NCBI RefSeq assembly: GCF_014203735.1
Contig: NZ_JACHJQ010000006.1
Location: 691,698 to 755,697 of the forward strand
Reading direction: 5' to 3'
Origin: Actinophytocola algeriensis
GTDB taxonomy: Bacteria > Actinomycetota > Actinomycetes > Mycobacteriales > Pseudonocardiaceae
Length of the DNA stretch: 64,000 bases
This document shows, piece after piece, positions 27,701 through 55,217 of the stretch (its first letter is position 1; each line of letters opens with the position of its first letter). The position numbers and the translations under genes were made by a program. The notes beneath the pieces were generated by a model that was given only the letters and a program-made list of their open reading frames with translations, did not search any database and had not been told where the DNA came from.

Positions 27701-28230
27701 CGCTTCATCCGGCGGGCGACGGCCAGGCCGGACTTCTTGGCGAACTTGGCCTTCGGGCCCGGTCCGTCGAACTCGCCGGGTACGCCGTGCGCGAACGACA
27801 TCTGGTGGACCTTGCCGTCCTGCTTGACGGTGATGTCGAAGCGGTGGGACAGCGCGTTGACCGCGGAGGCGCCGACGCCGTGGAGGCCGCCGGAGGTCTT
27901 GTAGCCGGAGCCGCCGAACTTGCCGCCCGCGTGCAGGCGGGTGAGCACCAGCTCGACGCCGGACAAACCGGACTTGGTGTGGACACCGGTCGGGATGCCG
28001 CGGCCGTCGTCGTCGACCTGGACGCTGCCGTCGGCGTGCAGGACCACCACGACGCGACTCGCGTGCCCGGCGATGCCCTCGTCGGTCGAGTTGTCCACGA
28101 TCTCGTTGAAGAGGTGGTTGATGCCCCGGCTGTCCGTCGAGCCGATGTACATCCCCGGCCGCTTCCGCACCGCCTCGAGACCTTCGAGGTGGGTCAGATC
28201 GTCGGCACCGTAAAAGGTTCCCGCAGTCAC
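24727..28230 (-). CDS. parE: DNA topoisomerase IV / gyrase-like subunit B interrupted by an in-frame intein
   Basis: The 1167-residue reading frame is a normal ParE/GyrB of 683 residues carrying a 484-residue intein at residues 472-955. The GHKL ATPase domain shows [22 protein letters not shown] and [18 protein letters not shown], and the transducer domain follows. The TOPRIM domain starts at [11 protein letters not shown] (catalytic Glu 465), is broken by the intein, and resumes at SARM..., continuing to [17 protein letters not shown] and RFKGLGEMD. Splicing is required to rebuild the metal-binding site, so an unspliced protein should be inactive. GTG at 28230 is the likely start. It pairs with ParC 16 bases downstream for ATP-driven decatenation. 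Confidence 0.93.
25366..26817 (-). mobile_element. ParE intein with HNH homing endonuclease, inserted in TOPRIM motif
   Basis: This 484-residue protein intron (residues 472-955 of the ParE frame) begins with Cys ([10 protein letters not shown], splicing block A). It has block B in [15 protein letters not shown] (TxxH), block F in [13 protein letters not shown], and ends FVHN before the +1 Ser. An HNH nuclease core lies at intein residues 153-179 ([10 protein letters not shown]...RNI...H). Residues 208-370 hold a run of helical repeats of about 18-20 residues, and residues 385-450 may be another DNA-binding segment. Boundaries were checked at the codon level: TGT at 26817 for Cys1, AAC at 25368 for the last Asn, AGT at 25365 for Ser+1. 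No LAGLIDADG motif is present. Confidence 0.92.
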
Positions 28231-35961: not shown

Positions 35962-36560
35962 AGGCCATGCCCAGAATCGCGCTCGCCGTCGCCGGTGTGC
36001 TGTTCCTGCTCTACCCCGTCGTCCGGCCGTGGGACGACGAGACCACCGCCGCCGGGGCGCACGCCGCCATGGCCTCCGGTGCGTGGGTGGCCTCCCACCT
36101 CTTCGCCATGGTCGGGTTCATCCTCATCGGGCTCGCGCTGCTGGGCTTACGGGACCTGGTCGGCACCACCGCGGTCGCGGTCATGTGGGCCGGTGCCGGG
36201 TTGACGCTGACCTACTACGGCGCAGAGGACTTCGGTCTGCACGCGGCCGCCACCACCGCGGGCACCGACCTGCTCGCCGTCGCGGAGGCCACGCGCTACC
36301 ACCCGGTCGCCGTCACGGCGTTCGGGGCCGGGCTGGTCGCGCTCGCGGTCGGTGCGGTGCTGGTCGCGCTCAAGGTCCGGCAGCCGGGCGCGTGGGTGTT
36401 CGCCGCCGGGTTCGTGCTGTTCCTGCCGCAGTTCTTCACCCCGGCGCCGGTGCGGATCGCGCACGGAGTGCTGATGCTGGCCGGGCTGGTGTGGTTCGCG
36501 GTCTCGCTAGGCGGCGAACGCACCGCGCAGCGACCGGTACAGCAGGCCGGCGTCGCCTAG
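35958..36560 (+). CDS. Membrane protein cotranscribed with a TetR regulator (200 aa)
   Basis: Five to six hydrophobic helices (IALAVAGVLFLLYPVV, LFAMVGFILIGLALLGL, AVAVMWAGAGLTLTYYG and others) with no known motif. GTG at 35958 overlaps the TetR stop; ATG at 35967 is an alternative. The gene overlaps the convergent nurA by 54 bases at its 3' end. Function unknown; transport or stress relief under the coupled regulator is a guess. Confidence 0.65.
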   Translation: MKAMPRIALAVAGVLFLLYPVVRPWDDETTAAGAHAAMASGAWVASHLFAMVGFILIGLALLGLRDLVGTTAVAVMWAGAGLTLTYYGAEDFGLHAAATTAGTDLLAVAEATRYHPVAVTAFGAGLVALAVGAVLVALKVRQPGAWVFAAGFVLFLPQFFTPAPVRIAHGVLMLAGLVWFAVSLGGERTAQRPVQQAGVA

Positions 36561-37451
36561 GCGGTGCTTCAGCTGACGCTCCAGACCACCGATCGGCACG
36601 AGGTTCTGCGGGGCTCGCGGGTCCTTGTGCGGGACGCTTGCCAGGGCGGGCAGCACCAACGCCGTCACGTCGGCCAGCGCCACCGCCTCCTCGACCGCGA
36701 GATCGGCCGAGCACTCCAGCCGCACGACCGCCGCCCACGGCGCGCGCGTGGCCCCCGGCAGGCGCAGGTACCAGGAGCGCCGCTCCCACGAGGTGCCCAT
36801 GCCGAACACGGGGCTCCGCTGCCCCGGCCCGAGCGCGCCGATCACCACCGCCTGCTCGCGCTGCAGGTAGGACTTCTGGTGCGTCTTGACGTACCCGACG
36901 GTCCTGGCGAGGTGGGTGCGGCCGCGTAGCGGGCCGTCGACGACCAGCAGGTCGTCCTCCGCACCCGACTGCTCGCGCCACCGGGCCGCCAGCTCCACCT
37001 CCAGCTCGGACATCCGGTGCGTCACCCCGAAGGTCAGCTTGTCGAGGCCGCCGAGCGTGCGGTGGAACGCGTAGGTGGCGTGCCGGGTCTTGATGTCCTC
37101 GCCCTGCTCGGCGAAGAAGCCGCGGTCGACCTTCCAGTCGACGATCTGCGCCGCGCCGTCGCAGCGGACCAGCCCCGCCGCGACCGAGGCGGCGATGCCC
37201 GGCACCGGCTCGGGACCGTCCCCGTGGTGCCAGATCCGGGCGTCGATCCGCTGGACGCCGTCGAGGAACAGCACCGAGCCGGGCAGCGGTCCCGGTGCCG
37301 GCGTGATCGGTTGCCACCGCTCCGCGGGGACCTCCAGGCCGACGTCGAGGCGGGCGGTGGACTCGCGGCCGTCCAGCTCGTCCCCGCGCGCGACCCCGTA
37401 CCCGGGATCCCACGGATCGACGGTGTAGGTCGGCGCCAGCAGTCCGGTCAT
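36507..37451 (-). CDS. nurA: NurA-family nuclease
   Basis: 314 residues matching the NurA domain, an RNase H-like 5'-3' nuclease of archaeal DNA end resection. The metal-binding Asp is in VLFLDGVQRID (Asp 64) and a second in LLVVDGPLRGR (Asp 172). GYVKTHQKSYL follows, then a C-terminal EEAVALADVTA and GGLERQLKHRLGD (His 296). It is the last gene of the herA-sbcD-sbcC-nurA operon and starts 10 bases after sbcC, with GAGGGTG upstream of ATG 37451. In archaea NurA works bound to the HerA hexamer; the same partner is encoded here. Confidence 0.85.
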   Translation of the reverse strand: MTGLLAPTYTVDPWDPGYGVARGDELDGRESTARLDVGLEVPAERWQPITPAPGPLPGSVLFLDGVQRIDARIWHHGDGPEPVPGIAASVAAGLVRCDGAAQIVDWKVDRGFFAEQGEDIKTRHATYAFHRTLGGLDKLTFGVTHRMSELEVELAARWREQSGAEDDLLVVDGPLRGRTHLARTVGYVKTHQKSYLQREQAVVIGALGPGQRSPVFGMGTSWERRSWYLRLPGATRAPWAAVVRLECSADLAVEEAVALADVTALVLPALASVPHKDPRAPQNLVPIGGLERQLKHRLGDAGLLYRSLRGAFAA

Positions 37452-37461
37452 GGCTGCACCC

Positions 37462-39897
37462 TCACACCTCGACGCGCCGCAGTCGCGACGACGCGCCGTC
37501 GCGGGTGACCGCGAACTGCACCGGCACCCGCTCCGCCAGCGCCGGGACGTGCGTGACGATGCCGACCATCCGGTCGGTCTCGGCCGCGAGCCGCTCCAGC
37601 GTGGCCGCGACCGTGTCGAGCGTGGCCTCGTCGAGGGTGCCGAAACCCTCGTCGAGGAACATCGAGCTGAGGTCCCGCTTCCCGCCCGAGAGGCCAACGA
37701 CCTGGTGGGACAGCGCCAGCGCCAGCGCGAGCGACGCCTGGAACGTCTCCCCGCCGGACAGCGTGTTCACCGGCCGGGTGGTGCCCGCGTCGTTGTGGTC
37801 GAGCACGACGAGGTCGTTGCGGCTGTCGCGGTGCAGCTCGTACTGCCCGCCCGACAGCTGCATCAGGATCTCCGACGCCTCCGTCACCAGGGACTCGAGC
37901 GCCTCGGCGCACAGCCACGCCTCGAACCCGTTGGACTTCAGCAGCTGGCCGAGCAGGTGTGCGACCCGCTGCTCCTCGCGCGCCTGCGCGAGCTCCTCGA
38001 CCAGCGCCGCCGACCGGGACCGCTTGCCGGTCAGGTCCGCGAGGTCGCGCCGGGCGCCCTCGAGCGCGGTGCCGAGCACCACATCCGCCTTCGCGCGGTC
38101 GGGCAGCGGGACGTCGTGCTCGGCCAGCAGCGTCGCGACCGCCGTCCTGGCGGCCGTGCCCTCGGCGGCCAGCTCCCGCTCCGTGCGGTCCAGGTCGTCG
38201 ACGCGGGCGGTCAGCTCGTCGCGGTGGGTGGTCGCCCAGGTGAGCAGCGCCTGCCACGCCGCGGCGAGATCGGCGCCCTCCACCGGCGGCACACCCAGCG
38301 CCACGAACTGGTCGCGGCTGGCGCGTAGCGCCGCCCACGCGCGTTGTTCCTCGTCACCGAGCGCGGTGCGTTCCCTCTGCGCGTCGTCGACCGCACGGCG
38401 TGCGGCCCTGGCCCGGGTCCTGGCGCGCTCGGCGGCGGCATCGGCCGCCTCCCGCTTCTCCAGCGCGGTCTCGACCTCGGCGAGCGGCGGCGCGGACCGC
38501 AGCTCGGCGGCCAGCTCGGCGGACTGCCGCTGCCCGCCCTCGACCTCCGCCTTGGCGGTCGCGGCGGCACGAGCGGTGTCGGCGTGCGCCTTGCGCGCGG
38601 CCGTGACCTGGGACTTGGCCGTCTTCACCGCGACGCGGGCGTCGCCGAGGTCGGCCGGGACGGCGTGGTGCGGCAGGTCGTGGACCTGCTGGCGGCACAC
38701 CGGGCACGGCTCACCCTCGACCAGGTCGGCGGCGAGCGCGACCGCCCGGTGCGCGCGGTCGGCGGTGGTCTGCGCGGTCTCGGCGTCGGCGAGGGCCTGC
38801 TCGGCGGCCACCAGCTCGGCGGCCGCGGCCTTCTCCGCCGCGTCCGACTCCGCGGCGGCCGCGCTCAGCCGCTCCAGCCGGGACGTGAGCGTCGCCAGCC
38901 GGGTGTGGGCGTCGCGCCAGCGGACCAGCTCCGCCTGCTCCGGGAGCCCGGCGCGGGCGGCCTCCACTTTCGTCTCCGCCTCCTCCGCCTCGGCCTTCTC
39001 CGCGACGCGACGGGTGATCAGCTCGTCGGCGTCGGCGAGCCGGGTGGCGAGGTCCACCACGTCGCCGGGACGGCGCAGCCCCGACAGGTCGGCGAGTTGC
39101 TCACGCGCGATCTTCGTGGCGGCGTTGGCCTCCGCCCAGCGAGCGCGGACCTCGGCCATCTTCTCCACGGACTCGTCGACCGCGGGCACCAGACCGGCCA
39201 GCCGGTCGACCCGCTCCGACGCCGCCGCGACGACCTCGTCGGTGACCATGCCCAGCTCGGCCAGCTGCTTCTCGCGGTCCTTGAGCCTGCTCGCGGCGAC
39301 ACTCGCCCGCTCGCGGGCCTTCTTGCCGATGTCCTCGTACACCGCGAAGGCGAGCAGGTTGATCAGCAGGTCCTGGCGGTCACCGGCCTTGGCCTGCAGG
39401 AACTCCGCGAACCGGCCCTGTGGCAGCACGACGCACTGCGTGAACTGCTCGTACCCGATGCCCAGCAGCTCACTGACCGCGCCGGTGACCTTGTCGCCCT
39501 CGGCCACGGACTCGGCGACCGCCTCGAGGATCTTCGTGAGGTCCGCGTCAGGCGGCACCGACGGGTCGAGCCGGTCGAGCCGCGCCTCCTTGGTCTGCAC
39601 GTTGCCCTGTGCGCTGCGGCGCAGCAGCCGCACGGCCGCGTACCGGCCACCCGACGCCTCGAACACGAGGCACACCTTGCCCTCGTTGACCGACGGCGCG
39701 AGCGCGTTGCGGATGACGTTCCCCTTGCCCCACCGGGGAACCGTGCCGTACAGCGCGAAGCACAGGGCGTCGATCACCGTCGACTTGCCGGCACCGGTCG
39801 GACCGGTGAGCACGAAGAAGTCGACGTCGTGCAGCGCCACGTCGGTCTCGTCGCGGTAGCTGCCGAAGCCCTCGAACATCAGGCGCAACGGACGCAT
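37462..39897 (-). CDS. sbcC: SbcC/Rad50-type SMC ATPase of DNA end processing
   Basis: 811 residues. Walker A is GPTGAGKST at 32-40 and the Q-loop region is CVVLPQGRFAEFLQAK. A long coiled coil (about 190-680) carries the zinc hook CPVC at residues 398-401, the ABC signature LSGGE is at 713-717, and Walker B FLDEGFGTLD surrounds Asp 749 and Glu 750. This is a short Rad50 compared with about 1000 residues in many bacteria, chiefly through a shorter coiled coil. With SbcD it forms the complex that opens and trims double-strand ends and hairpins. It lies between sbcD and nurA on the same strand. Confidence 0.93.
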   Translation of the reverse strand: MRPLRLMFEGFGSYRDETDVALHDVDFFVLTGPTGAGKSTVIDALCFALYGTVPRWGKGNVIRNALAPSVNEGKVCLVFEASGGRYAAVRLLRRSAQGNVQTKEARLDRLDPSVPPDADLTKILEAVAESVAEGDKVTGAVSELLGIGYEQFTQCVVLPQGRFAEFLQAKAGDRQDLLINLLAFAVYEDIGKKARERASVAASRLKDREKQLAELGMVTDEVVAAASERVDRLAGLVPAVDESVEKMAEVRARWAEANAATKIAREQLADLSGLRRPGDVVDLATRLADADELITRRVAEKAEAEEAETKVEAARAGLPEQAELVRWRDAHTRLATLTSRLERLSAAAAESDAAEKAAAAELVAAEQALADAETAQTTADRAHRAVALAADLVEGEPCPVCRQQVHDLPHHAVPADLGDARVAVKTAKSQVTAARKAHADTARAAATAKAEVEGGQRQSAELAAELRSAPPLAEVETALEKREAADAAAERARTRARAARRAVDDAQRERTALGDEEQRAWAALRASRDQFVALGVPPVEGADLAAAWQALLTWATTHRDELTARVDDLDRTERELAAEGTAARTAVATLLAEHDVPLPDRAKADVVLGTALEGARRDLADLTGKRSRSAALVEELAQAREEQRVAHLLGQLLKSNGFEAWLCAEALESLVTEASEILMQLSGGQYELHRDSRNDLVVLDHNDAGTTRPVNTLSGGETFQASLALALALSHQVVGLSGGKRDLSSMFLDEGFGTLDEATLDTVAATLERLAAETDRMVGIVTHVPALAERVPVQFAVTRDGASSRLRRVEV

Positions 39898-39960
39898 GTC
39901 AGCGGCCTCCCGTGTGGAATCGTTCGCGTCGTTCCTCCGGCGGCACGCCGTCGCTCCCGC

Positions 39961-41106
39961 TCATGTCGACTCTTCGAGCAGCTCGGCGAACATGGCGCCC
40001 AGCCGGGGGTCGTCGATCTCCTTCTCCGACAGGAAGTCCGCGAACAGGTCGGTCGGCGACCGGCCCACCCGGGACTTCACCGCACCGGACTGGGCCCTGG
40101 CACGGAAGTTCTCGTCGATCTGCACGTCGAGCGTGTTCGGCAGCTTCTCGCGGACCATGTCGGCGATCCCGGCCTTGGCCTTCTCCTTGAGGATCACCCG
40201 CAGGAACGCGTCCCCCGCCTCCTCCCCCGCGGCGACCACCTCGTCGAACGTGCCCCGCAGGGTCGCGAGGCGGCGGCCGCCGGTCAGCGGCACCGGCCGG
40301 ACCGTGGCGCGGGTGTCCGGCGTGACGTGCACGATCAGCGCGACCGACGTGTTGTCCTCCTCCCCGAAGTCCAGCGCGATCGGCGACCCCGAGTACGCGA
40401 TGGGGCACGGCCCGCCGATCTCCTGGTACCGGTGCAGGTGCCCGAGCGCGGCGTAGTGCGTGCTGACGGGGAACGTGTCCGGTGGCACCTCGTAGCCGAG
40501 CAACTGCACCTGCCGCTCGCCGCCGCCCCAGCGGCCGCCCAGCATGGTGGCGTGTGTGGTGACGAGGTTGACCGTGTCGCCGCTGAAGTCCGCGCACAGC
40601 ATGCCGATGATCGACCGCATGCGGTTGGCGTAGTCCTGGTTGTGCTGCGACGGCGCGTGCAGCAGGACCTCGGCGGCGCGGACCGCTACCCGGTGCGACA
40701 GGAACGGCAGCGCGGCGACCACGGCCTGCTCACCGGACCGGGCCTTGAGCGTCACGCTGCCGCCGCGGTCGGGCCGCTGCGGCGTGCCGACGACGTGCAT
40801 GCCCAGCTCACCGAGCACCGGGCGGTACACGTCCTGCACGAGCCGCGCGTTGTCGTGGTTGCCCGCGAGCACCACCACGTGCCTGCCCTCGGCACGGAGC
40901 GCCATGAGCGTCTGCATGACCAGGCCCTGCGCCTGTGGGCTGGGCGCGGCGGTCTCGAACAGGTCGCCTGCGACGATGACGAGGTCGACGTCCTCCTCGT
41001 CGGCGACCCGCACGAGGTCGCGGAGGACGGCACGCTGCTCGTCGATGCGTGGCTGGTTCTTGAGCACCTTGCCGACGTGCCAGTCGGCCGTGTGCAGGAT
41101 CTTCAT
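39961..41106 (-). CDS. sbcD: SbcD/Mre11-type exonuclease subunit
   Basis: 381 residues of the calcineurin-like nuclease family. Metal ligands are visible in order: HTADWHVG (Asp 8, His 10), AGDLFE (Asp 48), LAGNHDN (Asn 83, His 84), TTHATMLGG, and LGHLHR. The C-terminal region carries the helix-loop-helix that binds the SbcC coiled coil. It partners SbcC, encoded 63 bases downstream. A 32-bp triple repeat separates it from herA upstream. Confidence 0.93.
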   Translation of the reverse strand: MKILHTADWHVGKVLKNQPRIDEQRAVLRDLVRVADEEDVDLVIVAGDLFETAAPSPQAQGLVMQTLMALRAEGRHVVVLAGNHDNARLVQDVYRPVLGELGMHVVGTPQRPDRGGSVTLKARSGEQAVVAALPFLSHRVAVRAAEVLLHAPSQHNQDYANRMRSIIGMLCADFSGDTVNLVTTHATMLGGRWGGGERQVQLLGYEVPPDTFPVSTHYAALGHLHRYQEIGGPCPIAYSGSPIALDFGEEDNTSVALIVHVTPDTRATVRPVPLTGGRRLATLRGTFDEVVAAGEEAGDAFLRVILKEKAKAGIADMVREKLPNTLDVQIDENFRARAQSGAVKSRVGRSPTDLFADFLSEKEIDDPRLGAMFAELLEEST

Positions 41107-41125
41107 GAGGCCCCTCTGTACGACT

Positions 41126-41221
41126 CAGTGCTGTCGATTCGCTCCGCAAGCTCCGCTCAGTGCTGTCGATTCGCTCCGCAAGCTCCGCTCAGTGCTGTCG
41201 ATTCGCTCCGCAAGCTCCGCT
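41126..41221. repeat. Three exact tandem copies of a 32-bp unit between herA and sbcD
   Basis: The unit starting CAGTGCTGTCGATTCGCTCC and ending GCAAGCTCCGCT occurs at 41126-41157, 41158-41189 and 41190-41221 without mismatch. It begins 20 bases before the sbcD start codon and ends at the herA stop. On the operon's coding strand each copy carries GCGGAGC twice, purine-rich motifs that could serve as ribosome entry sites. It may reflect recent slippage. Confidence 0.95.
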
Positions 41222-43002
41222 CAGAACGGTGGTGGGTCGTCGTCCAGTCCGGCGAACGGGTCGGCGGGCGGCGCGGGACCGTCGTCGACACCGGTCCACG
41301 CCCCCTTCTCCGCGGGCCGCGTCGCCCACGCGGGGAACGGGAACTCGATCGCCAGCGGCACCGGGATGTCGGGCTGTGAGACGAACATCGTGCCGGGCTT
41401 CGCGATCGTCGCACGCTGCCGCTGCGCGGGCGGCAGGTAGCCGTACTCGGGCCGCGACGCCTCGGCCGGGTCGAGCCGTCCGGCGACGCGGATGGAGCAG
41501 TTCGCGACGATGCGCCGCTCCACCTCGGACGCGGTCTGCTGCGCGCCGATGAGGATCACGCCCAGCGACCGGCCCCGCTCGGCGACGTCGAGCAGGATCT
41601 GCTTGATCGGGCTGTCACCGTCACGCGGCGCGTACTTGTTCAGCTCGTCCAGCACGATGAACATCAGCGGCCGCGCGGTGCCCTGCTCTTCCTTGCGGCG
41701 GAACTCCTGCCGCAGCGACACACCGACCACGAACCGCTGCGCCCGGTCCGGCAGGTTGTGCAGGTCGATGACCGTGACCTGCGCCTTCGACGTGGTGAGC
41801 GACCGGTCGCCCCGGTCCTTGAGGTCCGACCGGATCAGCCGCTCGAGCGGCTTCACGGCCGAGCGGAGGCGACGCAGGAACGCGTTGACGCTGCCGGTCG
41901 ACGTCGACCCGGCCACCCAGTCGCGGCGCAGCTCCTCGTCCAGCAGCTCGTCCTCGATCAGCCCGACGAGCTGCTCGAAGGTGCGGATCGGGCCGCCGTT
42001 GACCGCCTCCACCCCGGAGATCGAGATGGCCCCGTCCGCGCCGACCTTGGTGTAGTCCCGCTTGAGCCGGGCGGCGACCTGGCCGATCAGCATCGTGTAC
42101 TGGGCGCGTTCGTCCTCGCCGTCGGCGAACACGAACGGCATCAGCTCCTGCTCGCAGAACTCGGCGAGCGTCCAGTAGAACGGCGACACCGCGCGGTCGC
42201 GGGCCCGCACGTCCGGGGTGCCACTCGGGTCACCCGGCCGCGGCGGCGCGAACACCTGCACGTTGCGGAACGACGAGGACGGCAGGCCGAGCACGCCGTA
42301 CTTCGCGCGCATGGCGTCGGTGAGGCGGGAGTTCTCGTAGTCGAGGAACAGCAGGTCCTCGCCCTTGACCGAGAAGATCAGCGCCTTGGTGTTGTGCGCC
42401 TCGCCGTGCAGCACCCCCGAGTTGAAGATCGAGTGCAGCATGAACGTGGCGAACGAGGTCTTCGTCGCGATGCCGGAGACACCGGAGATCGAGACGTGGC
42501 CGCCGCGGGTGCCGTCGACGAACTCGAAGTTGAGGTACACCGGCTGCCCGTCACGCCCGATGCCGATCGGCACCTTCGCGTCGGCCATCGTGTCGAAGTA
42601 CAGCGCCGAGTCACGGGCGTCGCCCTCGGCCCGCATCACCGGACTGCCGGGCCGCGGCGGCACGTACACCTCTGGCTCGACCCGGGTGACCGTCACCTCG
42701 GCGACCTCGGACACCTCGGCGGGCAACGCGCCCTGCTCGATGAGGAACACGTCGGACGCGAACCGCGCACCCTCGTGCCCGGCCTCGATCTGGGTGACCA
42801 CCCCGGCGATCTGCACCTCGCTGCCGTCCGGCAGCTTGCGCTTGGTCACGACCACGTCGTCGAGTTGCAGGTACTGGTCGGCCGCGACCCCGACGGAGAA
42901 CTCGAGCGGACTGGCGGCGACGGTGCCGACCACGAGGCCGACCGGCCTGGCCTGCCCGTTCGGCCCCACCGCCAGGTCCGTCGCGCCGTTCGGCTCTGGC
43001 AC
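41221..43002 (-). CDS. herA: HerA-type hexameric DNA-pumping ATPase
   Basis: 593 residues. An N-terminal beta-barrel (HAS-barrel, about 18-110) is followed by the HerA/FtsK-like ATPase core. The P-loop is SISGVSGIATKTSF (Lys 181, Thr 182), where the usual second Gly before Lys is Thr. Walker B is LMFIVLDELNKYAP (Asp 452, Glu 453) with a downstream VILIGAQQTASEVERRI sensor/arginine region. In archaea HerA forms a hexamer that pumps DNA into NurA and cooperates with Mre11-Rad50; genes for all three partners follow. GTG at 43002 has AAGGAG at -7. The last 50 residues are acidic and proline-rich. Confidence 0.85.
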   Translation of the reverse strand: MPEPNGATDLAVGPNGQARPVGLVVGTVAASPLEFSVGVAADQYLQLDDVVVTKRKLPDGSEVQIAGVVTQIEAGHEGARFASDVFLIEQGALPAEVSEVAEVTVTRVEPEVYVPPRPGSPVMRAEGDARDSALYFDTMADAKVPIGIGRDGQPVYLNFEFVDGTRGGHVSISGVSGIATKTSFATFMLHSIFNSGVLHGEAHNTKALIFSVKGEDLLFLDYENSRLTDAMRAKYGVLGLPSSSFRNVQVFAPPRPGDPSGTPDVRARDRAVSPFYWTLAEFCEQELMPFVFADGEDERAQYTMLIGQVAARLKRDYTKVGADGAISISGVEAVNGGPIRTFEQLVGLIEDELLDEELRRDWVAGSTSTGSVNAFLRRLRSAVKPLERLIRSDLKDRGDRSLTTSKAQVTVIDLHNLPDRAQRFVVGVSLRQEFRRKEEQGTARPLMFIVLDELNKYAPRDGDSPIKQILLDVAERGRSLGVILIGAQQTASEVERRIVANCSIRVAGRLDPAEASRPEYGYLPPAQRQRATIAKPGTMFVSQPDIPVPLAIEFPFPAWATRPAEKGAWTGVDDGPAPPADPFAGLDDDPPPF

Positions 43003-43765: not shown

Positions 43766-45037
43766 TCACGGCAAAGAAGGTTGGTACAGCCACTGGTCGA
43801 AGAACGCCGTCAGCGAGCGGCCGGCGTGCCGTTGGGCCAGGGCTGCGAAGTCCGACGTCACCACCGTGCCGTGCCGGTGGGTGGCGGTCCACTCGCGCAG
43901 CAACGGGAAGAAGACCTCGTCGCCGACGAGCGTCCGCAGGGTGTGCAACGTGAGCGCACCCCGCTGGTAGAGGCGGTCGTCGAACATGTCGCGGGCCGGG
44001 GGGTCGCCGATGCGGAGGTTCTGCGGCATGGTCGCCAGCAGGGCCCTGGACCGGGCCGCGAGGGTCTCCGCGCGGGGGCCGCCCGACCGTTCCGACCACA
44101 GCCACTCCGCGTACGCGGCGAAGCCCTCGTTGAGCCAGATGTGCTGCCAGTCCGCGAGCCCGACGCTGTTGCCGAACCACTGGTGCGCCAGCTCGTGTGC
44201 GACCAGCCGCTCGTGACCTCGGTGGCCGTCGACGTGGTTGGCACCGAAGATCGACAGGCCCTGCGCCTCGACCGGCACCTCCAGCTCGTCGTCGGTCACG
44301 ACGACCGCGTACTCCGCGAACGGGTACGGCCCGAACAGCTCCGTGAAGACCCGCATCATCTTGGGCTGGCGGGCGAAGTCGTGCTGGGCGGCGCGGGACA
44401 GTCCCCGCGACACCGCGAGGATCTGCCCCGGCGACAACAGGATCCGCTCGTAGAGTCCTATTTGGACAGTCGCGAGGTAGGGCGCCATCGGCTCGTCGGC
44501 CACGTAGGTCCACGTGGCGGTGGAGCCGCCGGAGGTGCGTGCCGACAGCACTCCGTTGGCCACCACGGTGTACGCGGTCGGGACGGTGACCTCGATGCGG
44601 AAGGTGGCCTTGGCGCCGACGTGGTCGTCGCACGGGAACCAGGACGGCGCGCCGACGGGCTGGCTCGCGACGATGACCCCGTCGGTCAGCTCGTCCCAGC
44701 CGACCTCGCCCCAGTACCGGGTGCGGACCGGCGTCGGCCGTCCCGCGTACCGGATCTCCACCGGGAAGGGGGTGTCCACGAGGAACCGGCCGCGGATGCG
44801 CACCTTCCCGCCGCGGTGGGTCCACCGCACGGGTTTGCCGTCCACCAGCACGCGCTCGATGCGGAACGGTCCGAGGTCGAACACGAGCGGGGTGTCCGCG
44901 GCGGCCGCGACCACGGTCAGTCGCGCCTTCCCCGACAGCCGCCCGGTCGCCGGTTTCGTCGCCAGCTCGAGGTCGTAGTGCGAGACCCGGTAGCCGTGGT
45001 TGCCGTGCCCGAGCAGGCCGGTGTCGCTCAACGCCAT
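43766..45037 (-). CDS. M1-family zinc aminopeptidase
   Basis: 423 residues. The zinc site is HELAHQWFGN with the third ligand in HIWLNEGFAAYAEWL (HExxH-x18-E), near residues 270-300. The substrate-recognition segment reads PVEAQGLSIFG in place of GAMEN, a known variant among actinomycete short M1 peptidases. No signal peptide is seen, so it is likely cytoplasmic or peripheral. Its start at 45037 overlaps the end of the Pls/PosA-type synthetase gene by 10 bases, implying coupled synthesis. An aminopeptidase beside a poly-amino-acid synthetase recalls the epsilon-polylysine-degrading aminopeptidase of Streptomyces albulus. Confidence 0.88.
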   Translation of the reverse strand: MALSDTGLLGHGNHGYRVSHYDLELATKPATGRLSGKARLTVVAAAADTPLVFDLGPFRIERVLVDGKPVRWTHRGGKVRIRGRFLVDTPFPVEIRYAGRPTPVRTRYWGEVGWDELTDGVIVASQPVGAPSWFPCDDHVGAKATFRIEVTVPTAYTVVANGVLSARTSGGSTATWTYVADEPMAPYLATVQIGLYERILLSPGQILAVSRGLSRAAQHDFARQPKMMRVFTELFGPYPFAEYAVVVTDDELEVPVEAQGLSIFGANHVDGHRGHERLVAHELAHQWFGNSVGLADWQHIWLNEGFAAYAEWLWSERSGGPRAETLAARSRALLATMPQNLRIGDPPARDMFDDRLYQRGALTLHTLRTLVGDEVFFPLLREWTATHRHGTVVTSDFAALAQRHAGRSLTAFFDQWLYQPSLP

Positions 45038-48000
45038 GCGGCGACGGGGTTGCCGAGCCAGCGGGTCCCCGCGGGCATCTGCTCTCCCGCCATGACGAGC
45101 GACGCGGGACCGACACACGTGTGTGCCCCGACGGTGGTTCCTGGCAGCACGATCCCGTGCGGGCCGAGCGTCGCGCCCGCCGCCAATGTCACCTGGTCCA
45201 TGCGCAGGATCCGATCATGGAACAGGTGCGTTTGTACAACACACCCCCGGTTGACGGTCGCCCCGTCACCCAGATGGACCAGGTCTGCCTCGGGCAGCCA
45301 GTACGAGTCGCACCACACGCCGCGGCCGACCCGCGCGCCCAGCGCCCGCAGCCACCACGACATCAGCGGGGTGCCGCCGACCGAACCGACGAGCCACGGC
45401 ACCGCCAGGACCTCGACGAACGTGTCCGCGAGCTCGTTGCGCCACACGAACGACGACCACAGCGGGTGGTTGCGCGCCCGGAAGCGGCCGACCAGCAGCC
45501 ACTTCGCGGCCACCGCCACCGCGCACGCGGCGAGTCCGCCACCGATGAGCAGCACGCCGCTCACCAGCAGCCCGAGCGGGAAGCCGACCTCGCCGATCGC
45601 CGCGAACACGAGCACGGCGAGCGCGACAGAGCACATCATCGGCACGACCCGGCACAGCTCGACGAGTGCGCGGGCGACCAGCAGCCGCCGCGGCGGCTCG
45701 TAGGTGCGCCCGGCGTCGCCGCGCTCGGCGACGCGCGGCAGCTTCATCGGCGGCATGCCCAGGTAGGAACTGCCGGCCTTGGCGCGTTTCGGCGCCGCGG
45801 ACAGCACCCCGACGAGACCGCGTTTGGGCACGGACCGGCCGGGTGCGGCCATGCCGGAGTTGCCGACGAACGCCCGTTTCCCGACCCGCACGGCCGCGAT
45901 CCGCAGCCAGCCGCCGCCGAGTTCGTAGGAGGCGACCATGGTGTCGTCGGCGAGGAACGCGCCGTCGCCGACGGTCGTCATCGCGGGCAGCGCCACGACG
46001 GTCGAGGCCTCGACGTGCCTGCCGACGCGCATGCCGAGCGCCCGCAGCCAGACCGGCGTGAACAGGCTGGCGTACAAGGGGAACAGGAGACTCCTGGCGG
46101 AGTCCATGAGCCGCAACGTGGTCCACGCCTGCCACGCGACCCGGCCGCGCACGGGGTGGTGCCCCTCGTGCAGGCCGATCCCGAGCAGCCGCACGGACAC
46201 CAGCGTCAGCAGCGCGTGCGTGACGAGCCACGTCACCGTCACCGCCGGCACGGCCGCGAGCGCGGCACCGAGCGTCGGGGTGCCGCCGAGGAACAGCGTG
46301 AACACCCACAGGGCGGGCAGGGCCGACACGACGGGCAGGAGTCCGAGCAGGACGGACGTGACGTCGTAGACGGCGAGCCACGTGCGGGGCCGGGCCGGGC
46401 GGGCCTTGGGCCAGCGGTGCGCGGCCTTGCCCTGCTTGGCCGCCGGCACACCGGACCAGCGCTGTCCGGTCGGGACGGACCCGACCACACCGGAGCCGGG
46501 CGCGATCTCGGCGCGCTTGCCGATGCGGGCGCCGGGGAACAGGGTGCTGCGGGCGCCGACGGTCGCGTCCGCGCCGACGCGGATCTTGCCGATGTGGACG
46601 AGGTCGCCGTCGACCCACGTGCCGGACAGGTCGACCTCGGGCTCGATCGCGGCGCCGCGGCACACCTTGAGCATGCCGGTGACCGGCGGCAACGAGTGCA
46701 GGTCGGCACCGTCGGCGACGCGGGCACCGAGCGCGCGGGCGTAGTGGGTGAGCCAGGAGCCCGCGAGGTCGGTGGCACCGGACCGTTCCGCGAGCTGCTC
46801 GGCCGCCCACAGTCGCAGGTGGACACCGCCGCCACGCGGATAGGTGCCGGGTTTGACGCCACGCAACAACATCCGCGCGCCACCGGCGGCGATCGCGAGC
46901 CGTCCCGGCGGGCTGAACAGCAGCAGCCAGCCAGCGCCGACGAGCCACCACGACGTGGTGAACGGGTAGCCGAGGAGGTTGCCGAGCGCGGCGAGCACGA
47001 CCGTCCACCGCAGACCGACGATCGTCAGCAGCGGCAGCATCGCGAGGGTCTGGATGACCGCGGCGCGCCGCGGCACCGGGGCGATCTCGCGGGTCGAGGC
47101 CTGTGGGCCTGCCAGCTCGTCGAGCCGCGCGGCCAGCGCCGCGACGGTCGGCCGGTGGTAGACGTCGCTCACCGACACCGACGGGTGGTCGGCGCGGACC
47201 AGCGAGACGAGCCGGGCGGCGGCGAGGCTGCCGCCGCCGGACGCGAAGAAGTCCGCGCCGGGTCCGGCGGGCGGCGCGCCGAGCACCTCGGCCCAGCGCT
47301 CGCCGAGCCACGCCTGGGTGCCGTGCAGTTCCCCGGCGGCCACCTCGCCGAGATCCAGCGGCCAGGGCAACGCGTTCCGGTCGACCTTGCCGGACGTGCG
47401 GGTGGGCAGCGTGCCGACGACCGCGAGCCGCGGCACGAGCGCGGCGGGCATGGCCTCCCGCAGCCGGGTCAGCGCGCTGTCGGCGTCGAAGTCCGGGGCC
47501 ACGACGACGTAGCCGACGAGCAGCTGGGTGCCGCTCGCGGTGGTGCGGACGGCCGCGGCGGCGCCGGAGACACCCGGCAGTGCCTGCAGCGCGGCGTCGA
47601 TCTCGCCCAGCTCGATGCGGCGGCCGCCGAGCTTGACCTGCTCGTCGGCGCGGCCGAGGAACAGCAGCCCTTCGGGTTCGGCACGCACGAGGTCGCCGCT
47701 GCGGTAGGCGCGGGTCCAGCCCAGCGACGGCAGCGGCGCGTACTTCTCGGCGTCCTTGGCGGGGTCGAGGTAGCGCGCGAGGCCGACACCGCCGATGACC
47801 AGCTCACCCGTGCCGCCCATGGGCACGACCTCGCCTGCCTGGTCGACGACCGCCAGCTCCCAGCCCGCGAGCGGCAGCCCGATGCGGACCGGGCCCTCGC
47901 CGGTCATCCTCGCGCCGCACGCGACGACCGTGGCCTCGGTCGGGCCGTAGGTGTTCCACACCTCGCGACCGTCCTGGGCGAGACGTGCCGCCAGGTCGGG

Positions 48001-48852
48001 CGGGCACGCCTCGCCGCCGAGGATCAGCAGCCGCACGTCCAGCAGCGCCTCGGCCGGCCACAGCGCGACGAGCGTCGGCACGGTGGAGACGACGGTGATC
48101 TCCTGCTCCACCAGCCACGGTCCGAGGTCCACCCCGGTGCGGACGAGCCAGCGCGGCGCGGGCACCAGGCACGCTCCGTTGCGCCACGCGAGCCACATCT
48201 CCTCGCAGGAGGCGTCGAACGCGACGGACAGCCCGGCGAGCACGCGGTCGTCCGGGCCGATCGGGCCGACCGAATCGGTGGCGAGGAACAGGTCGGCCTC
48301 GGCGTCGACGAACGCGGCGGCGGCGCGGTGGCTGACCGCCACGCCCTTGGGCCTGCCGGTGGAGCCGGAGGTGAAGATGATCCACGCGTCGTCGCCGAGC
48401 CCGGCCTGGCCGCGGCCCGCCGGGGTGTCGAGCACGACCAGCTCGCGGCCCTCACCCAGCACCGCGCACACGGCGGCCTCGGTGAAGACGAGGTCGGCGC
48501 GCTCGTCGGGGTCCTCGAAGTCGACGGGCACGTACGCCGCGCCCGCCGCGAGCACCGCGAGGATGGCGACGTACAGGTCGGCGGTGCCGGACGGCACCCG
48601 GATGCCGACGCGGTCACCGGCGCCGATGCCCTCGGCGGTGAGCTTCTGCCGCAGCTCGTCGACCGCGGCCAGCAGACCGGTGTAGGTGAGGACGGTCGTG
48701 CCGTCGTCGATCGCGGACGCCGCCGGGTGGCGGGCCGCGGTGTCGGCGAGCACGTCGTTCAGGGTGCGCGGTGCCGCGGCCGCGGCACCGCTGAAGAGGG
48801 CGAGCGGTGTGGTGAGGGTATCGAGCAGTGACTCGGTACAGACGGCAGTCAT
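45028..48852 (-). CDS. Pls/PosA-type single-module nonribosomal peptide synthetase (1274 aa)
   Basis: An adenylation domain (about 25-495) has IFTSGSTGRPKG (A3, 159-170), NTYGPTEATV (A5), YRSGDLV (A7) and PTRTSGKVDRNALP (A10). A carrier domain (about 510-580) has FFASGGGSLAAARL with the phosphopantetheine Ser. The C-terminal 650 residues alternate membrane helices with three left-handed beta-helix-like stretches (IGKIRVGADATVGARSTLF, VGDGAFLADDTMVAS, LGDGATVNRGCVVQTHLF). This is the architecture of epsilon-poly-lysine synthetase and relatives, which link one amino acid into short homopolymers at the membrane. There is no condensation or thioesterase domain. The amino acid used cannot be told by eye. 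An M1 aminopeptidase gene overlaps its end. Confidence 0.88.
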   Translation of the reverse strand: MTAVCTESLLDTLTTPLALFSGAAAAAPRTLNDVLADTAARHPAASAIDDGTTVLTYTGLLAAVDELRQKLTAEGIGAGDRVGIRVPSGTADLYVAILAVLAAGAAYVPVDFEDPDERADLVFTEAAVCAVLGEGRELVVLDTPAGRGQAGLGDDAWIIFTSGSTGRPKGVAVSHRAAAAFVDAEADLFLATDSVGPIGPDDRVLAGLSVAFDASCEEMWLAWRNGACLVPAPRWLVRTGVDLGPWLVEQEITVVSTVPTLVALWPAEALLDVRLLILGGEACPPDLAARLAQDGREVWNTYGPTEATVVACGARMTGEGPVRIGLPLAGWELAVVDQAGEVVPMGGTGELVIGGVGLARYLDPAKDAEKYAPLPSLGWTRAYRSGDLVRAEPEGLLFLGRADEQVKLGGRRIELGEIDAALQALPGVSGAAAAVRTTASGTQLLVGYVVVAPDFDADSALTRLREAMPAALVPRLAVVGTLPTRTSGKVDRNALPWPLDLGEVAAGELHGTQAWLGERWAEVLGAPPAGPGADFFASGGGSLAAARLVSLVRADHPSVSVSDVYHRPTVAALAARLDELAGPQASTREIAPVPRRAAVIQTLAMLPLLTIVGLRWTVVLAALGNLLGYPFTTSWWLVGAGWLLLFSPPGRLAIAAGGARMLLRGVKPGTYPRGGGVHLRLWAAEQLAERSGATDLAGSWLTHYARALGARVADGADLHSLPPVTGMLKVCRGAAIEPEVDLSGTWVDGDLVHIGKIRVGADATVGARSTLFPGARIGKRAEIAPGSGVVGSVPTGQRWSGVPAAKQGKAAHRWPKARPARPRTWLAVYDVTSVLLGLLPVVSALPALWVFTLFLGGTPTLGAALAAVPAVTVTWLVTHALLTLVSVRLLGIGLHEGHHPVRGRVAWQAWTTLRLMDSARSLLFPLYASLFTPVWLRALGMRVGRHVEASTVVALPAMTTVGDGAFLADDTMVASYELGGGWLRIAAVRVGKRAFVGNSGMAAPGRSVPKRGLVGVLSAAPKRAKAGSSYLGMPPMKLPRVAERGDAGRTYEPPRRLLVARALVELCRVVPMMCSVALAVLVFAAIGEVGFPLGLLVSGVLLIGGGLAACAVAVAAKWLLVGRFRARNHPLWSSFVWRNELADTFVEVLAVPWLVGSVGGTPLMSWWLRALGARVGRGVWCDSYWLPEADLVHLGDGATVNRGCVVQTHLFHDRILRMDQVTLAAGATLGPHGIVLPGTTVGAHTCVGPASLVMAGEQMPAGTRWLGNPVAAWR

Positions 48853-50574: not shown

Positions 50575-51228
50575 ATGGCGCGTCGCAGTTCCGGCGACTC
50601 GGAGGCACAGGATGAGGGAAGATCCATCCGGGTCCTGCTTGCGGAAGACATGGATCTTCTCCGCACGGCCTTGGTGAGCTTGTTGTCGGTGGAGGAGGAC
50701 ATAGAGGTCATCGCCGATCTGAAATGCAACGAGAGGGCGGTGTCGGTGGCGGTCCGGTTGCGACCGGATGTCGCGGTGGTCTCCGCCGACCTGCCGGAGA
50801 ACAAGGGTTTGACGACTGTCCACGAGCTGCGCAAGCGGCTGCCGGAGTGCCAGATCGTGGCCCTGACGGTGAAGCGGCCGGTTGGTTTGCTGAAACGACT
50901 GCTCGCGGCCGATGTGTCCGGTCTGATCGACAAGAACGCACCGGCGGCGCGGTTGCTGCACGCGATCCGCGGCGTCGCGCAGGGCGGGACCGTGATCGAC
51001 GCGAACCTGGTGATCGCCGCGCTGTCCGCCGGCCGGAACCCGTTCACCCCGAGGGAGCTGTCGGTGCTGCAGCTGGCGGCCGAGGGCGCGAGCGGTCCCG
51101 AGATCGCGAAGCAGCTGTCGCTGTCGCCGGGGACGGTGCGCAACTACCTGTCGAACGCGATGAACAAGACCGGGGCCCGGACCCGGATCGACGCGATCCG
51201 CATCGCGACCGAGTCAGGCTGGCTGTGA
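50575..51228 (+). CDS. ramR: RamR-like atypical NarL/LuxR-family response regulator
   Basis: 217 residues: a receiver domain (about 18-135) and a LuxR-type helix-turn-helix (about 150-215, FTPRELSVLQLAAEGASGPEIAKQL and LSLSPGTVRNYLSNAMNKTGA). The acidic pair (Glu 24, Asp 25) and the switch Lys (LIDKNAP) are present. At the phosphoacceptor position the sequence reads VVSADLP, so by my alignment Ser 70 replaces Asp, with an Asp two residues later. Known RamR/AmfR proteins are orphan regulators without an obvious kinase, and none is encoded here. It converges on ramB (15-base overlap). AGGAGGAGG precedes the start. It should activate ramC-S-A-B. Confidence 0.85.
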   Translation: MARRSSGDSEAQDEGRSIRVLLAEDMDLLRTALVSLLSVEEDIEVIADLKCNERAVSVAVRLRPDVAVVSADLPENKGLTTVHELRKRLPECQIVALTVKRPVGLLKRLLAADVSGLIDKNAPAARLLHAIRGVAQGGTVIDANLVIAALSAGRNPFTPRELSVLQLAAEGASGPEIAKQLSLSPGTVRNYLSNAMNKTGARTRIDAIRIATESGWL

Positions 51229-52917
51229 CGCCTTCCGCGTGTCACGGCCCGCTTCCCAGTGACCGAGGAGGTCCCGGTAGAGCGGCGAGGTGCGGCGCAG
51301 GGTGGTGTGGTCACCGATGGCCGCACCGGCTCCGTCGAGCACGAGCACCCGGTCGGCCCGGAGGGCGGAACTGATGCGGTGCGCGATCACGATCAATGTG
51401 CCGCGGTCGGCGAAGGCGTCCTCGGCCCGCCGCTCGGCCACCGGATCGAGGTGGCAGGTGGCCTCGTCGAGGACGACCAGGGGTGCGGGTGACAGGTAGG
51501 CCCGCACGAGTGCGACGAGCTGTCGTTCCCCGGCGGACATGTCCCCTGGCCGCAGTTCGGTGTCGTAGTCACCGAGGTCGGCGCCGACCGCCGAGGCGGC
51601 GGCGTCCAGGTCCGCGGTCGTGGCGTCCGGGTTGAGGTAGGTGAGGTTCTCCCGCAGGGTGCCGGTGAAGACGTAGGCCTCCTGCGGGATCAGCACCCGC
51701 ACGTGTTCTGGACGTGCCAGGTCGGCGGCGGGCACCCCACCGAGGGTGACCTCGCCCCGGTCCGGCCGCAGCAACCCGCACAGCAGGCTGACCACCGTGG
51801 ATTTCCCGATACCGCTGGGCCCGACGACGGCGAGGTGCTCACCGTGCGCGACGGTGAGATCGAGGCGGTCGATGACGGGCTCGGCGTGCGGCCCGTAGGC
51901 GAAGGTGACGTTGTCGAGGCGGACGGCGTGCCCGTCACCCGTCTCGTCCCGCCGTGGCCCGGCGACGACGTCCGTGGCGGCGAGTACCCGCCCGAGGGTG
52001 ATGACGAACCGCAACCCGCTTCCCCCGACCCCGGCGACGAAGTTCTGCAGTGCGGGCTGGAGTCCGAAGAGCACGTAGGTGGCGCCACCCATGAGCGCAC
52101 CGGCGGTGAGCCCGTTGCCGACGAGCCAGGGCCCGGCGAAGAGCAGGACCAGCAGGGGGAGCCAGCCGCCGATGGCGAAACAGGCGGTCCGCAGGGCGGC
52201 GACCTTGGCGAGTGCCCGCTCGGCGGCGGCCTGCTCGGCGATGGGCACGGCGACGAGCGCACGGGCCTTGTCTTCGGTACCGCATGCGGAGACGTCGCGC
52301 ACCCCGGAGAACACCCGGTCGGCGGCGTCGCTGAGCCGCTCGTCGGCGAGCACGGAAGCCCGCTGCCGCGCGGCGGCGACCCCGAGCACGGCCAGGAAGG
52401 CGAGGAGCCCGAGCAGGAACGGCGGCAAGATCAGCAGGGCGATGACGGGCGCTACGGAGAGCGACCCGGCGACCACCCCGGCAACGGTGACGACGAACCC
52501 CCGGACGACGATGACCAGCCCGGCGTAGGTGTCCCGGACTATCTCGACCTGACGGGTGAGCCGGGCGAGCGCGCCGTGGTCTGGTCGTCCGTCGGCGCCG
52601 TTGCGCAACGCGCCACCGACGACCCGCCGGACGAGCGTGTCCCGGAAGGGTTCCGCGAGGTCCCCGAGCCGCCGGAACACCATGCGCGTCCCGACCGCTC
52701 CGACGAGCGAGACGACGACGAGGGACGCGAGCCACAGCAGTCCGACGTCGGTCCGCCCGGCGAGGAACCCGCGGTCGACGGCGTTGGCGACGGCGACTCC
52801 GGACACGGCGGCGGGCAGTGCTTCCGGCAGGGACCAGAGCAGGAGAGCGGTGGTAGGCCGCGCGGAAAGCGACCCGACGGCGTAACGAAGTTCCCGTTTC
52901 ACGTCAACACCCGCCAC
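51214..52917 (-). CDS. ramB: ABC transporter (fused permease-ATPase), RamB-like
   Basis: 567 residues: six membrane helices (about 20-300) and an ATPase with Walker A GPSGIGKST, signature MSAGERQLVALVRA (Ala for the usual Gly), Walker B LVVLDEATCHLD and H-loop IAHR. It is the second half-transporter of the ram locus and should pair with the RamA-like protein upstream to export the SapB-like peptide. GTG at 52917 lies inside the end of a possible small gene; a GTG at 52902 is also possible. The nearest damage-promoter-like box (copy 1) has its -10 about 54 bases before this start. Confidence 0.87.
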   Translation of the reverse strand: MAGVDVKRELRYAVGSLSARPTTALLLWSLPEALPAAVSGVAVANAVDRGFLAGRTDVGLLWLASLVVVSLVGAVGTRMVFRRLGDLAEPFRDTLVRRVVGGALRNGADGRPDHGALARLTRQVEIVRDTYAGLVIVVRGFVVTVAGVVAGSLSVAPVIALLILPPFLLGLLAFLAVLGVAAARQRASVLADERLSDAADRVFSGVRDVSACGTEDKARALVAVPIAEQAAAERALAKVAALRTACFAIGGWLPLLVLLFAGPWLVGNGLTAGALMGGATYVLFGLQPALQNFVAGVGGSGLRFVITLGRVLAATDVVAGPRRDETGDGHAVRLDNVTFAYGPHAEPVIDRLDLTVAHGEHLAVVGPSGIGKSTVVSLLCGLLRPDRGEVTLGGVPAADLARPEHVRVLIPQEAYVFTGTLRENLTYLNPDATTADLDAAASAVGADLGDYDTELRPGDMSAGERQLVALVRAYLSPAPLVVLDEATCHLDPVAERRAEDAFADRGTLIVIAHRISSALRADRVLVLDGAGAAIGDHTTLRRTSPLYRDLLGHWEAGRDTRKASQPA

Positions 52918-54915: not shown

Positions 54916-54938
54916 GGGTTACCCTTCTCCACAAGGGT

Positions 54939-54975
54939 CGCGGTCCCGGACAAACGCCAGTTGTCCGGGACCGCG
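54939..54975 (-). terminator. Attenuator-like hairpin between ramS and ramA
   Basis: CGCGGTCCCGGACAA (54939-54953) and TTGTCCGGGACCGCG (54961-54975) make a perfect 15-bp stem with a seven-base loop. It stands 70 bases after the ramS stop and 23 bases before the ramA start. Partial termination here would give more precursor than transporter mRNA, as in other lanthipeptide operons. Confidence 0.75.
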
Positions 54976-55022
54976 TCCCGCTCCTACGCCCCGATGGACG
55001 TCAGAGCGATGCTCGTCACTCA

Positions 55023-55039
55023 GTAGCGATGCTCGCTAC
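55023..55039 (-). promoter_or_regulatory. Small hairpin just after ramS
   Basis: GTAGCGA-tgc-TCGCTAC, a perfect 7-bp stem with a three-base loop, starts seven bases beyond the ramS stop. The sequence GCGATGCTCG around it is repeated about 24 bp away. It may stabilise the ramS mRNA end. Confidence 0.45.
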
Positions 55040-55045
55040 GAATGC

Positions 55046-55192: not shown

Positions 55193-55217
55193 TGTTGGCT
55201 CCTTTTTCGGGGGTTTT

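What the first reader, a model, noticed from the sequence alone, without database searches (positions are those of the whole stretch)
36507..43002. Archaeal-type end-resection set herA-sbcD-sbcC-nurA in one bacterial operon
All four proteins of the archaeal HerA-Mre11-Rad50-NurA resection machine are encoded in a row on one strand, in the order ATPase, Mre11, Rad50, nuclease. As I recall, this is also the gene order in several thermophilic archaea. SbcC shows the CPVC hook, SbcD the full metal set, NurA two Asp motifs and HerA a Walker B. Most actinomycetes are described as resecting with AdnAB or RecBCD. An intact unit in an actinomycete suggests an additional resection or end-protection pathway, or a defence-linked one. 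A stand-alone LigD polymerase domain occurs 21 kb away.
Basis: partly seen in the sequence, partly recalled or inferred. Interest (0 to 1): 0.75.

Follow-up and report, generated by a model that had tools for sequence, protein, structure and literature searches.

The report
Actinomycete HerA-SbcCD-NurA DNA-end machine
A soil actinomycete carries, in one stretch, four genes for a machine that is expected to grip broken DNA ends, pump the DNA and chew it; the same gene set turns out to recur in many actinobacteria although common family models hardly recognise two of its parts.

Summary
The four genes are real, intact and in the stated order: herA 41221-43002, sbcD 39961-41106, sbcC 37462-39897, nurA 36507-37451, all minus strand, in an Actinophytocola genome. 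They are bacterial-type, not archaeal-type: HerA and NurA match the solved Deinococcus complex 7F6D (E 2e-143, 3e-17); SbcC and SbcD match E. coli SbcCD best. The set is not peculiar to this genome: 79 of 396 sampled Actinomycetota genomes have this HerA. Of 100 loci examined, 82 hold all four genes together; 16 of the other 18 run off a contig. Two gene orders occur, one change apart on a concatenated tree. The unit's SbcD belongs to a lineage clearly apart from stand-alone SbcD; Actinophytocola carries both, plus AdnAB and Ku, so the unit is additional there. Neighbourhoods are kept within families and show no clear defence context, but one Streptomyces linear plasmid carries the unit beside Wadjet-like genes. 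Most likely SbcCD opens blocked ends and HerA pumps the DNA into NurA, for repair. Precedent: nurA-hepA-sbcD-sbcC in Oceanithermus (PMC5448004). Function is untested here, and the role of HerA-NurA is contested in print (PMC12977600).

The parts
41221..43002 (-). herA: 593-aa bacterial (Deinococcus)-type HerA DNA-pumping ATPase; Walker A K181/T182, D216, Walker B D452/E453, R478, DNA-contact R460 and R517
   Evidence: phmmer to 7f6d_B E 2.1e-143 over residues 17-565; residue mapping; alignment A1
39961..41106 (-). sbcD: 381-aa Mre11-type nuclease of the HerA-linked SbcD lineage
   Evidence: TIGR00619 E 7.4e-48; 4lty_C SbcD E 3.8e-29; tree
37462..39897 (-). sbcC: 811-aa Rad50-type ATPase with CPVC zinc hook at 398, shorter than the stand-alone SbcC called in the same genome (1094 aa)
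   Evidence: TIGR00618 E 1.5e-71, below that model's cut-off; 6s6v_C E 1.4e-38; motifs; L204
36507..37451 (-). nurA: 314-aa NurA nuclease; D64, D172, K189, R279 invariant among 39 aligned unit NurAs
   Evidence: 7f6d_H E 3e-17 with the single protein, 4.8e-53 with the family profile; Pfam NurA 20.5 bits, cut-off 21
41128..41223 (-). three head-to-tail copies of a 32-bp repeat between herA and sbcD, the first beginning at the herA stop codon
   Evidence: sequence; 3 exact matches of a 23-bp core in the window, 0 expected; one copy of the core at the same place in A. oryzae, none in the stretches of four other congeners with up to 3 mismatches

Best explanation
A chromosomal, four-component DNA-end-processing machine of the bacterial HerA-NurA kind with its own dedicated SbcCD. 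Proposed order of work: (1) SbcCD binds a double-strand end, above all one blocked by protein or hairpin, tethers it and cuts near it; (2) a HerA hexamer loads on the opened duplex and pumps it by ATP hydrolysis; (3) the NurA dimer docked on the HAS-barrel face splits the strands and digests them, leaving a 3' tail for recombination or destroying the end. Shown here: protein identities, catalytic residues, co-linearity, co-inheritance, purifying selection. Known for homologues (papers): the 6:2 HerA-NurA complex, ATP-driven pumping, the strand-splitting pin, end digestion by the Deinococcus pair. Inferred: that this SbcCD and this HerA-NurA act on one DNA end, that the net product is a 3' tail, and that the role is repair alongside AdnAB.
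For: HerA and NurA match the two chains of one solved complex and keep 12 of 13 mapped catalytic or DNA-contact residues named in PMC9960219 (9 of 10 in HerA, R154 being lost; 3 of 3 in NurA). All four genes together in 82 of 100 loci; of the other 18, 16 are cut by contig ends and 2 have herA apart; in those two genomes nurA stands next to sbcC elsewhere. In 67 of 79 HerA+ Actinomycetota genomes an SbcD lies within 16 kb of herA. Pairwise distance matrices of the four proteins correlate at 0.855-0.93 over 40 chosen loci, largest value in 500 permutations 0.43. No gene family recurs at one place beside the unit across families among the 30 clusters listed, while neighbourhoods are kept within families. 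dN/dS 0.13-0.40.
Against: The units compared are related, so the correlations are partly shared ancestry. Of the drHerA acidic triad that binds drNurA only D78 is kept (D84, then F86, L87 here); of drNurA motif 3, 2 of 4 residues are kept, of motif 4, 2 of 3; so the interface must differ. HerA-NurA deletions in Deinococcus and Thermus gave little or even improved resistance, and Thermococcus HerA-NurA cuts both strands without leaving a 3' tail (PMC12977600, discussion part 1). HerA does not replace AdnAB: 37 genomes with both, 42 HerA only, 56 AdnB-like only, 261 neither of 396. In 12 of 79 HerA+ genomes no SbcD was found near herA. No expression or biochemical data.
Confidence: 0.6

Rival explanations
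1. The unit is an anti-invader nuclease: SbcCD senses free or unusual ends of incoming DNA, and HerA-NurA pumps and destroys both strands; repair is secondary.
For: Unit on a 451-kb linear Streptomyces plasmid beside TIGR02680/TIGR02678/DUF2397 genes (Wadjet-like by recall) and an ImmA/IrrE gene, and on a conjugative cyanobacterial plasmid with transposase genes nearby. Patchy between genera; two genera of one family hold units that do not form one clade (AU p 1.3e-67). PMC12977600 suggests an antiviral role for archaeal HerA-NurA. PADLOC HerA and mad8 models match HerA weakly.
Against: Among 111 flank proteins of 13 loci the most frequent PADLOC matches are kinase-like and MADS models in 2-3 proteins each (161 families matched, 25 listed, no control set) and the most frequent Pfam families are ordinary (123 matched, 25 listed). 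The region is conserved among Actinophytocola and in Micromonosporaceae, unlike a fast-turnover defence island. No relative in IMG/VR contigs with this query. In 65 of 79 HerA+ genomes the only SbcD found is the one near herA, which suggests housekeeping.
Confidence: 0.2
2. The four genes sit together by history, but HerA-NurA and SbcCD work separately (HerA-NurA with RecJ or SSB, SbcCD on hairpins).
For: Deinococcus HerA binds and stimulates RecJ (PMC4663267, passages); Thermus has nurA-hepA without sbcCD beside it (PMC5448004, section 3.1); herA stands apart from the rest in two of 100 loci.
Against: Near-constant linkage over the phylum in two gene orders and an SbcD lineage that goes with HerA.
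Confidence: 0.15
3. Relic or non-expressed unit.
For: A 3-copy 32-bp repeat separates herA from sbcD in this strain, which could weaken coupling.
Against: All four frames open, motifs intact, purifying selection, HerA present in 6 of 6 genus genomes.
Confidence: 0.03

Closest known systems
Deinococcus radiodurans NurA-HerA complex (7F6D, 7WRW, 7WRX; PMC9960219)
   Same: HerA homologous over nearly its full length, catalytic residues kept; NurA homologous, D53/K201/R309 kept
   Different: Studied in Deinococcus as a pair without SbcCD; interface residues E80/D81 not kept here; here herA and nurA flank sbcD-sbcC
Oceanithermus profundus nurA-hepA with sbcD-sbcC downstream (PMC5448004, section 3.1)
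   Same: Same four bacterial-type proteins in one cluster, as described there
   Different: Order nurA-herA-sbcD-sbcC; here nurA is last. The authors took it as recruitment in that genus; here the set is found across much of a phylum
Archaeal herA-mre11-rad50-nurA operons (Constantinesco 2004, not held; mentioned in PMC4663267 and PMC12977600)
   Same: Same four functions in one operon
   Different: Identity between archaeal and bacterial NurA/HerA under 20% per PMC9960219; here SbcC/SbcD are nearest E. coli SbcCD among solved proteins
Stand-alone SbcCD of Pseudonocardiaceae
   Same: SbcD-SbcC pair
   Different: 29-35% SbcD identity, opposite side of a 100/100 branch of length 1.63 for 22 of 23 rows; SbcC 1094 aa against 811 aa in this genome
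Anti-phage HerA proteins of solved structure (8xau and others; partner names SIR2 and DUF4297 from PMC12977600)
   Same: HerA-superfamily ATPase with a nuclease partner
   Different: Only a C-terminal part aligns (E 1.6e-4 to 0.05); partner here is NurA, with SbcCD

Membership tests
Bacterial HerA (drHerA type) | Near-full-length homology incl. HAS barrel region, Walker A K/T, Walker B DE, D220, R513, DNA-contact R495/R552 | tested here: met
   R154 not kept (E160)
NurA | Homology to solved NurA with catalytic D53, K201 and R309 equivalents | tested here: met
   Pfam cut-off missed by 0.5 bit; no structure prediction was obtained
HerA-NurA complex | 6:2 physical complex | not testable with these tools
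   interface residues partly lost; linkage only
SbcCD | SbcD phosphoesterase motifs and SbcC ATPase halves with CXXC hook | tested here: met
Archaeal-type HerA/NurA/Mre11/Rad50 | Closest relatives archaeal | tested here: not met
   bacterial solved proteins match best; NCBIfam HerA repair-helicase models E 0.03 and 0.09. No archaeal genome was searched
Anti-phage defence system | Defence-island context or phage-linked occurrence | tested here: inconclusive
   for; against, with capped lists and no control

The most novel reading that the evidence does not exclude
Actinomycetota carry two old SbcCD lineages, one free-standing and one bound to a HerA-NurA DNA pump, and the bound one is a single four-part machine that has moved as a block between lineages and onto plasmids. 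It may act as a second, RecBCD-like end-destroying system that decides between repair and degradation of linear DNA, overlooked because family models hardly recognise its HerA and NurA.
Probability: 0.35. Interest if true: 0.75.

Novelty: new member of a known kind. Interest (0 to 1): 0.52.

Why it matters
The papers seen here describe bacterial HerA-NurA as present in a few bacteria, naming Deinococcus-Thermus (PMC9960219, PMC4663267, PMC12977600), and dispute what it does. A unit linked to Mre11-Rad50-type proteins in about one in five sampled actinobacterial genomes (79 of 396), some of them cultured strains, makes the disputed question (resection, destruction of foreign DNA, or regulation) testable in bacteria; in two archaea the genes were essential or could not be disrupted (PMC12977600). 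The unit is also an annotation blind spot: 0 of 14 aligned HerAs match any Pfam family at E<=0.01, 11 of 39 NurAs match Pfam NurA at 0.001, and none of 38 NurAs matches a NurA model of NCBIfam.

Tried and rejected
Replacement of AdnAB by the unit: not supported; the two co-occur (odds ratio 4.1, no correction for kinship). A fifth partner gene: none at a fixed place across families among the 30 largest clusters listed. Link to NHEJ genes: LigD-like neighbours in isolated loci only (recognised by eye in the cluster list), Ku on other contigs. Phage origin: the IMG/VR scan gave 66 pattern matches and 0 relatives; phage records gave 3 weak matches. A mobile locus inside the genus: not supported; a response-regulator, transporter and lanthionine-synthetase block lies beside the unit in four of five congeners, with local insertions, and two further genes of that block are near it in the fifth. 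Structure prediction of NurA was not obtained. Three of the 79 HerA+ genomes (G051, G080, G392) match at only 30-31% identity with no SbcD found and may hold another HerA kind. The HerA-only tree places the nurA-first pair L061/L062 among herA-first rows, against the single order change of the concatenated tree; L061/L062 sit on a long branch there.

Papers: PMC9960219, parts 1-3 of 9 and passages; PMC5448004, section 3.1 and passages; PMC4663267, passages; PMC12977600, passages and part 1 of 2 of the discussion. Iyer 2004 and Constantinesco 2004 were not held. Paper searches listed no title that I recognised as being about the actinobacterial unit; these are listings, some capped (15 of 30, 30 of 38, 12 of 1,508), and the library lacks most subscription journals.
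Full report
What is there. On the minus strand stand herA, sbcD, sbcC and nurA. sbcC and nurA are 10 bp apart, sbcD and sbcC 63 bp, herA and sbcD 114 bp; the last gap is largely three copies of a 32-bp repeat that begins at the herA stop codon. By gene calls the herA-sbcD gap is 8-43 bp in four congeners and 173 bp in a fifth; A. oryzae has one copy of the repeat core there, and no match was found in the stretches of the other four.

What the proteins are. Single-sequence search of solved structures gives Deinococcus HerA 7f6d_B at 2.1e-143 for the 593-aa protein and Deinococcus NurA 7f6d_H at 3e-17 for the 314-aa protein. With profiles from actinobacterial relatives these become 1.4e-198 and 4.8e-53, and NurA also matches the Thermotoga protein 1zup at 9.1e-17. 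SbcD and SbcC match bacterial SbcD and SbcC chains best (4lty_C, 6s6v; E. coli by recall). Of 13 catalytic or DNA-contact residues of the Deinococcus pair (PMC9960219) 12 are kept: HerA K181, T182, K213, D216, D452, E453, R460, R478, R517 and NurA D64, K189, R279; HerA R154 is not (E160). Of the interface residues HerA D78 is kept but E80 and D81 are not. So the label archaeal-type is not supported, while HerA and NurA are. The curated models are weak here: Pfam NurA falls 0.5 bit short and Pfam HerA gives E 0.21; the own-genome search with Pfam NurA found nothing at 0.001.

How widespread. This HerA at E<=1e-30 occurs in 79 of 396 Actinomycetota genomes, own genome counted. Close to home it is in 6 of 6 genus genomes, in none of 19 sampled other genera of the family at high score (a few weak matches at 6e-5 or worse), and in 3 of 16 sampled genomes from other families of the order; named Pseudonocardia records also have it. 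These best 80 lean towards close relatives.

Synteny. Of the other 18, 16 end at a contig end within 172 bases on the downstream side and 2 (L103, L106) have herA alone with 6-10 kb of room; those two genomes have nurA next to sbcC elsewhere. All three gaps are at most 60 bp in 46 of 81 full loci and at most 150 bp in 65 (alignment envelopes). On a tree of 35 concatenated HerA-SbcD-NurA sets rooted on the cyanobacterial plasmid unit the 27 herA-first rows are one clade, support 100/99; all four members of that cyanobacterial unit were checked by profile. The HerA-only tree does not show a single change, since it sets the nurA-first pair L061/L062 on a long branch among herA-first rows.

A dedicated SbcCD. 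Each of six Actinophytocola genomes has the unit SbcD and at least one other match (own: C11, beside its own sbcC; G001 has two others). Of 19 other sampled genera of the family 17 have an SbcD match, at 29-35% identity to the unit's, and two have none. On a 65-row tree 22 of 23 stand-alone SbcDs lie on one side of a branch of length 1.63 (100/100) and all 42 unit SbcDs on the other; the exception, L189, comes from a short contig of a 74%-complete genome (G016, which also has another SbcD match) and joins a long branch. Three stand-alone copies of Actinophytocola (own, G002, G003) are in that tree. Across the phylum sample, 65 of 79 HerA+ genomes have an SbcD only near herA (within 16 kb; 50 of these within 500 bp), 2 have both, 6 only elsewhere and 6 none found; 44 of 317 HerA-negative genomes have an SbcD at E<=1e-15. 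At most four candidates per genome were scored in that search. The window's genus is therefore unusual in holding both kinds.

History. HerA of Actinophytocola groups with a Frankiales MAG and UBA9676, then Nocardioides and Microlunatus, apart from Pseudonocardia of the same family; holding the two genera together is rejected (p-AU 1.3e-67; the group was named after the SbcD tree had been seen). Distance matrices of the four proteins agree (r 0.855-0.93, 40 chosen loci). This fits transfer of the set as a block, then stable inheritance within the genus; gain cannot be told from loss by the tree alone.

Other resection genes. The own genome has an AdnAB-like pair on C9 (the first member matches 7sjr_A, annotated 'DNA helicase', E 6.4e-252; that this is mycobacterial AdnAB is recalled) and two Ku matches on C7 and C4. 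In the phylum sample HerA and the query from this pair co-occur in 37 genomes, 42 have HerA only, 56 the AdnAB-like match only and 261 neither, without correction for kinship and with a strict threshold for distant AdnAB.

Defence or repair. Of 111 flank proteins from 13 loci (12 non-plasmid, one plasmid) the most frequent PADLOC matches are kinase-like and MADS models in 2-3 proteins each; 161 families matched at least one protein and only 25 were listed, and no control set was scanned, so this is weak evidence of absence. Six plasmid records matched HerA, of which I opened three: the Streptomyces sp. BB1-1-1 plasmid carries the set next to TIGR02680, TIGR02678 and DUF2397 genes (Wadjet-like by recall) and an ImmA/IrrE gene, its herA and nurA annotated only as 'ATP-binding protein' and 'hypothetical protein'; a conjugative plasmid of Sphaerospermopsis carries the nurA-first set; the Nonomuraea record is 11.85 Mb long, so a chromosome by size. 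These cases keep a defence reading alive but do not carry it.

Mechanism and status. Shown: identities, residues, linkage, selection. From published work on homologues: pumping by the HerA hexamer, strand splitting and cutting by NurA. Inferred: joint action with SbcCD, and repair as the main role. The contested literature (PMC12977600: both strands cut, antiviral role suggested, effect of Mre11 named as open) makes this unit a useful test bed. Novelty is moderate: the kind of cluster is known from archaea and one Thermales genus; its breadth, its own SbcCD lineage and the annotation gap were not met in the papers and listings that I saw.

Noticed in passing
window 24727-28230 (-): The GyrB/ParE-type topoisomerase subunit is 1167 aa and carries an intein splicing domain (PF14890, residues 525-955, E 5.4e-17) just before the Toprim match; called lengths of the two topoisomerase genes differ in A. 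oryzae, so inteins may sit differently there.
   Followed up: partly
window 41128-41223: A 32-bp repeat in three copies; a 28-bp core has 9 sites in the genome with up to 2 mismatches, 0 for the reversed control. A. oryzae has one copy of the core at the same place: a dispersed repeat that expanded inside the operon.
   Followed up: partly
window 14205-15191 (-): Stand-alone LigD primase-polymerase domain, 82% identical in A. oryzae; in L057 (G049) genes that look LigD-like by eye lie a few genes from a HerA unit.
   Followed up: partly
window 50689-57815: RamC/LanC-type lanthionine synthetase (55218-57815) with two transporter-like genes and a response regulator (by eye): a lanthipeptide-like cluster that stays beside the unit in most congeners.
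   Followed up: no
L157 (Streptomyces sp. BB1-1-1 plasmid): The unit on a linear 451-kb plasmid lies beside Wadjet-like genes; its SbcC, like those of several Pseudonocardia loci, is about 1115 aa against about 815 aa in most other units.
   Followed up: partly
window 45028-48852 (-): 1274-aa protein with AMP-binding, PP-binding and hexapeptide domains, next to the unit in this strain and A. oryzae but not found in the stretches of the four other congeners compared.
   Followed up: partly
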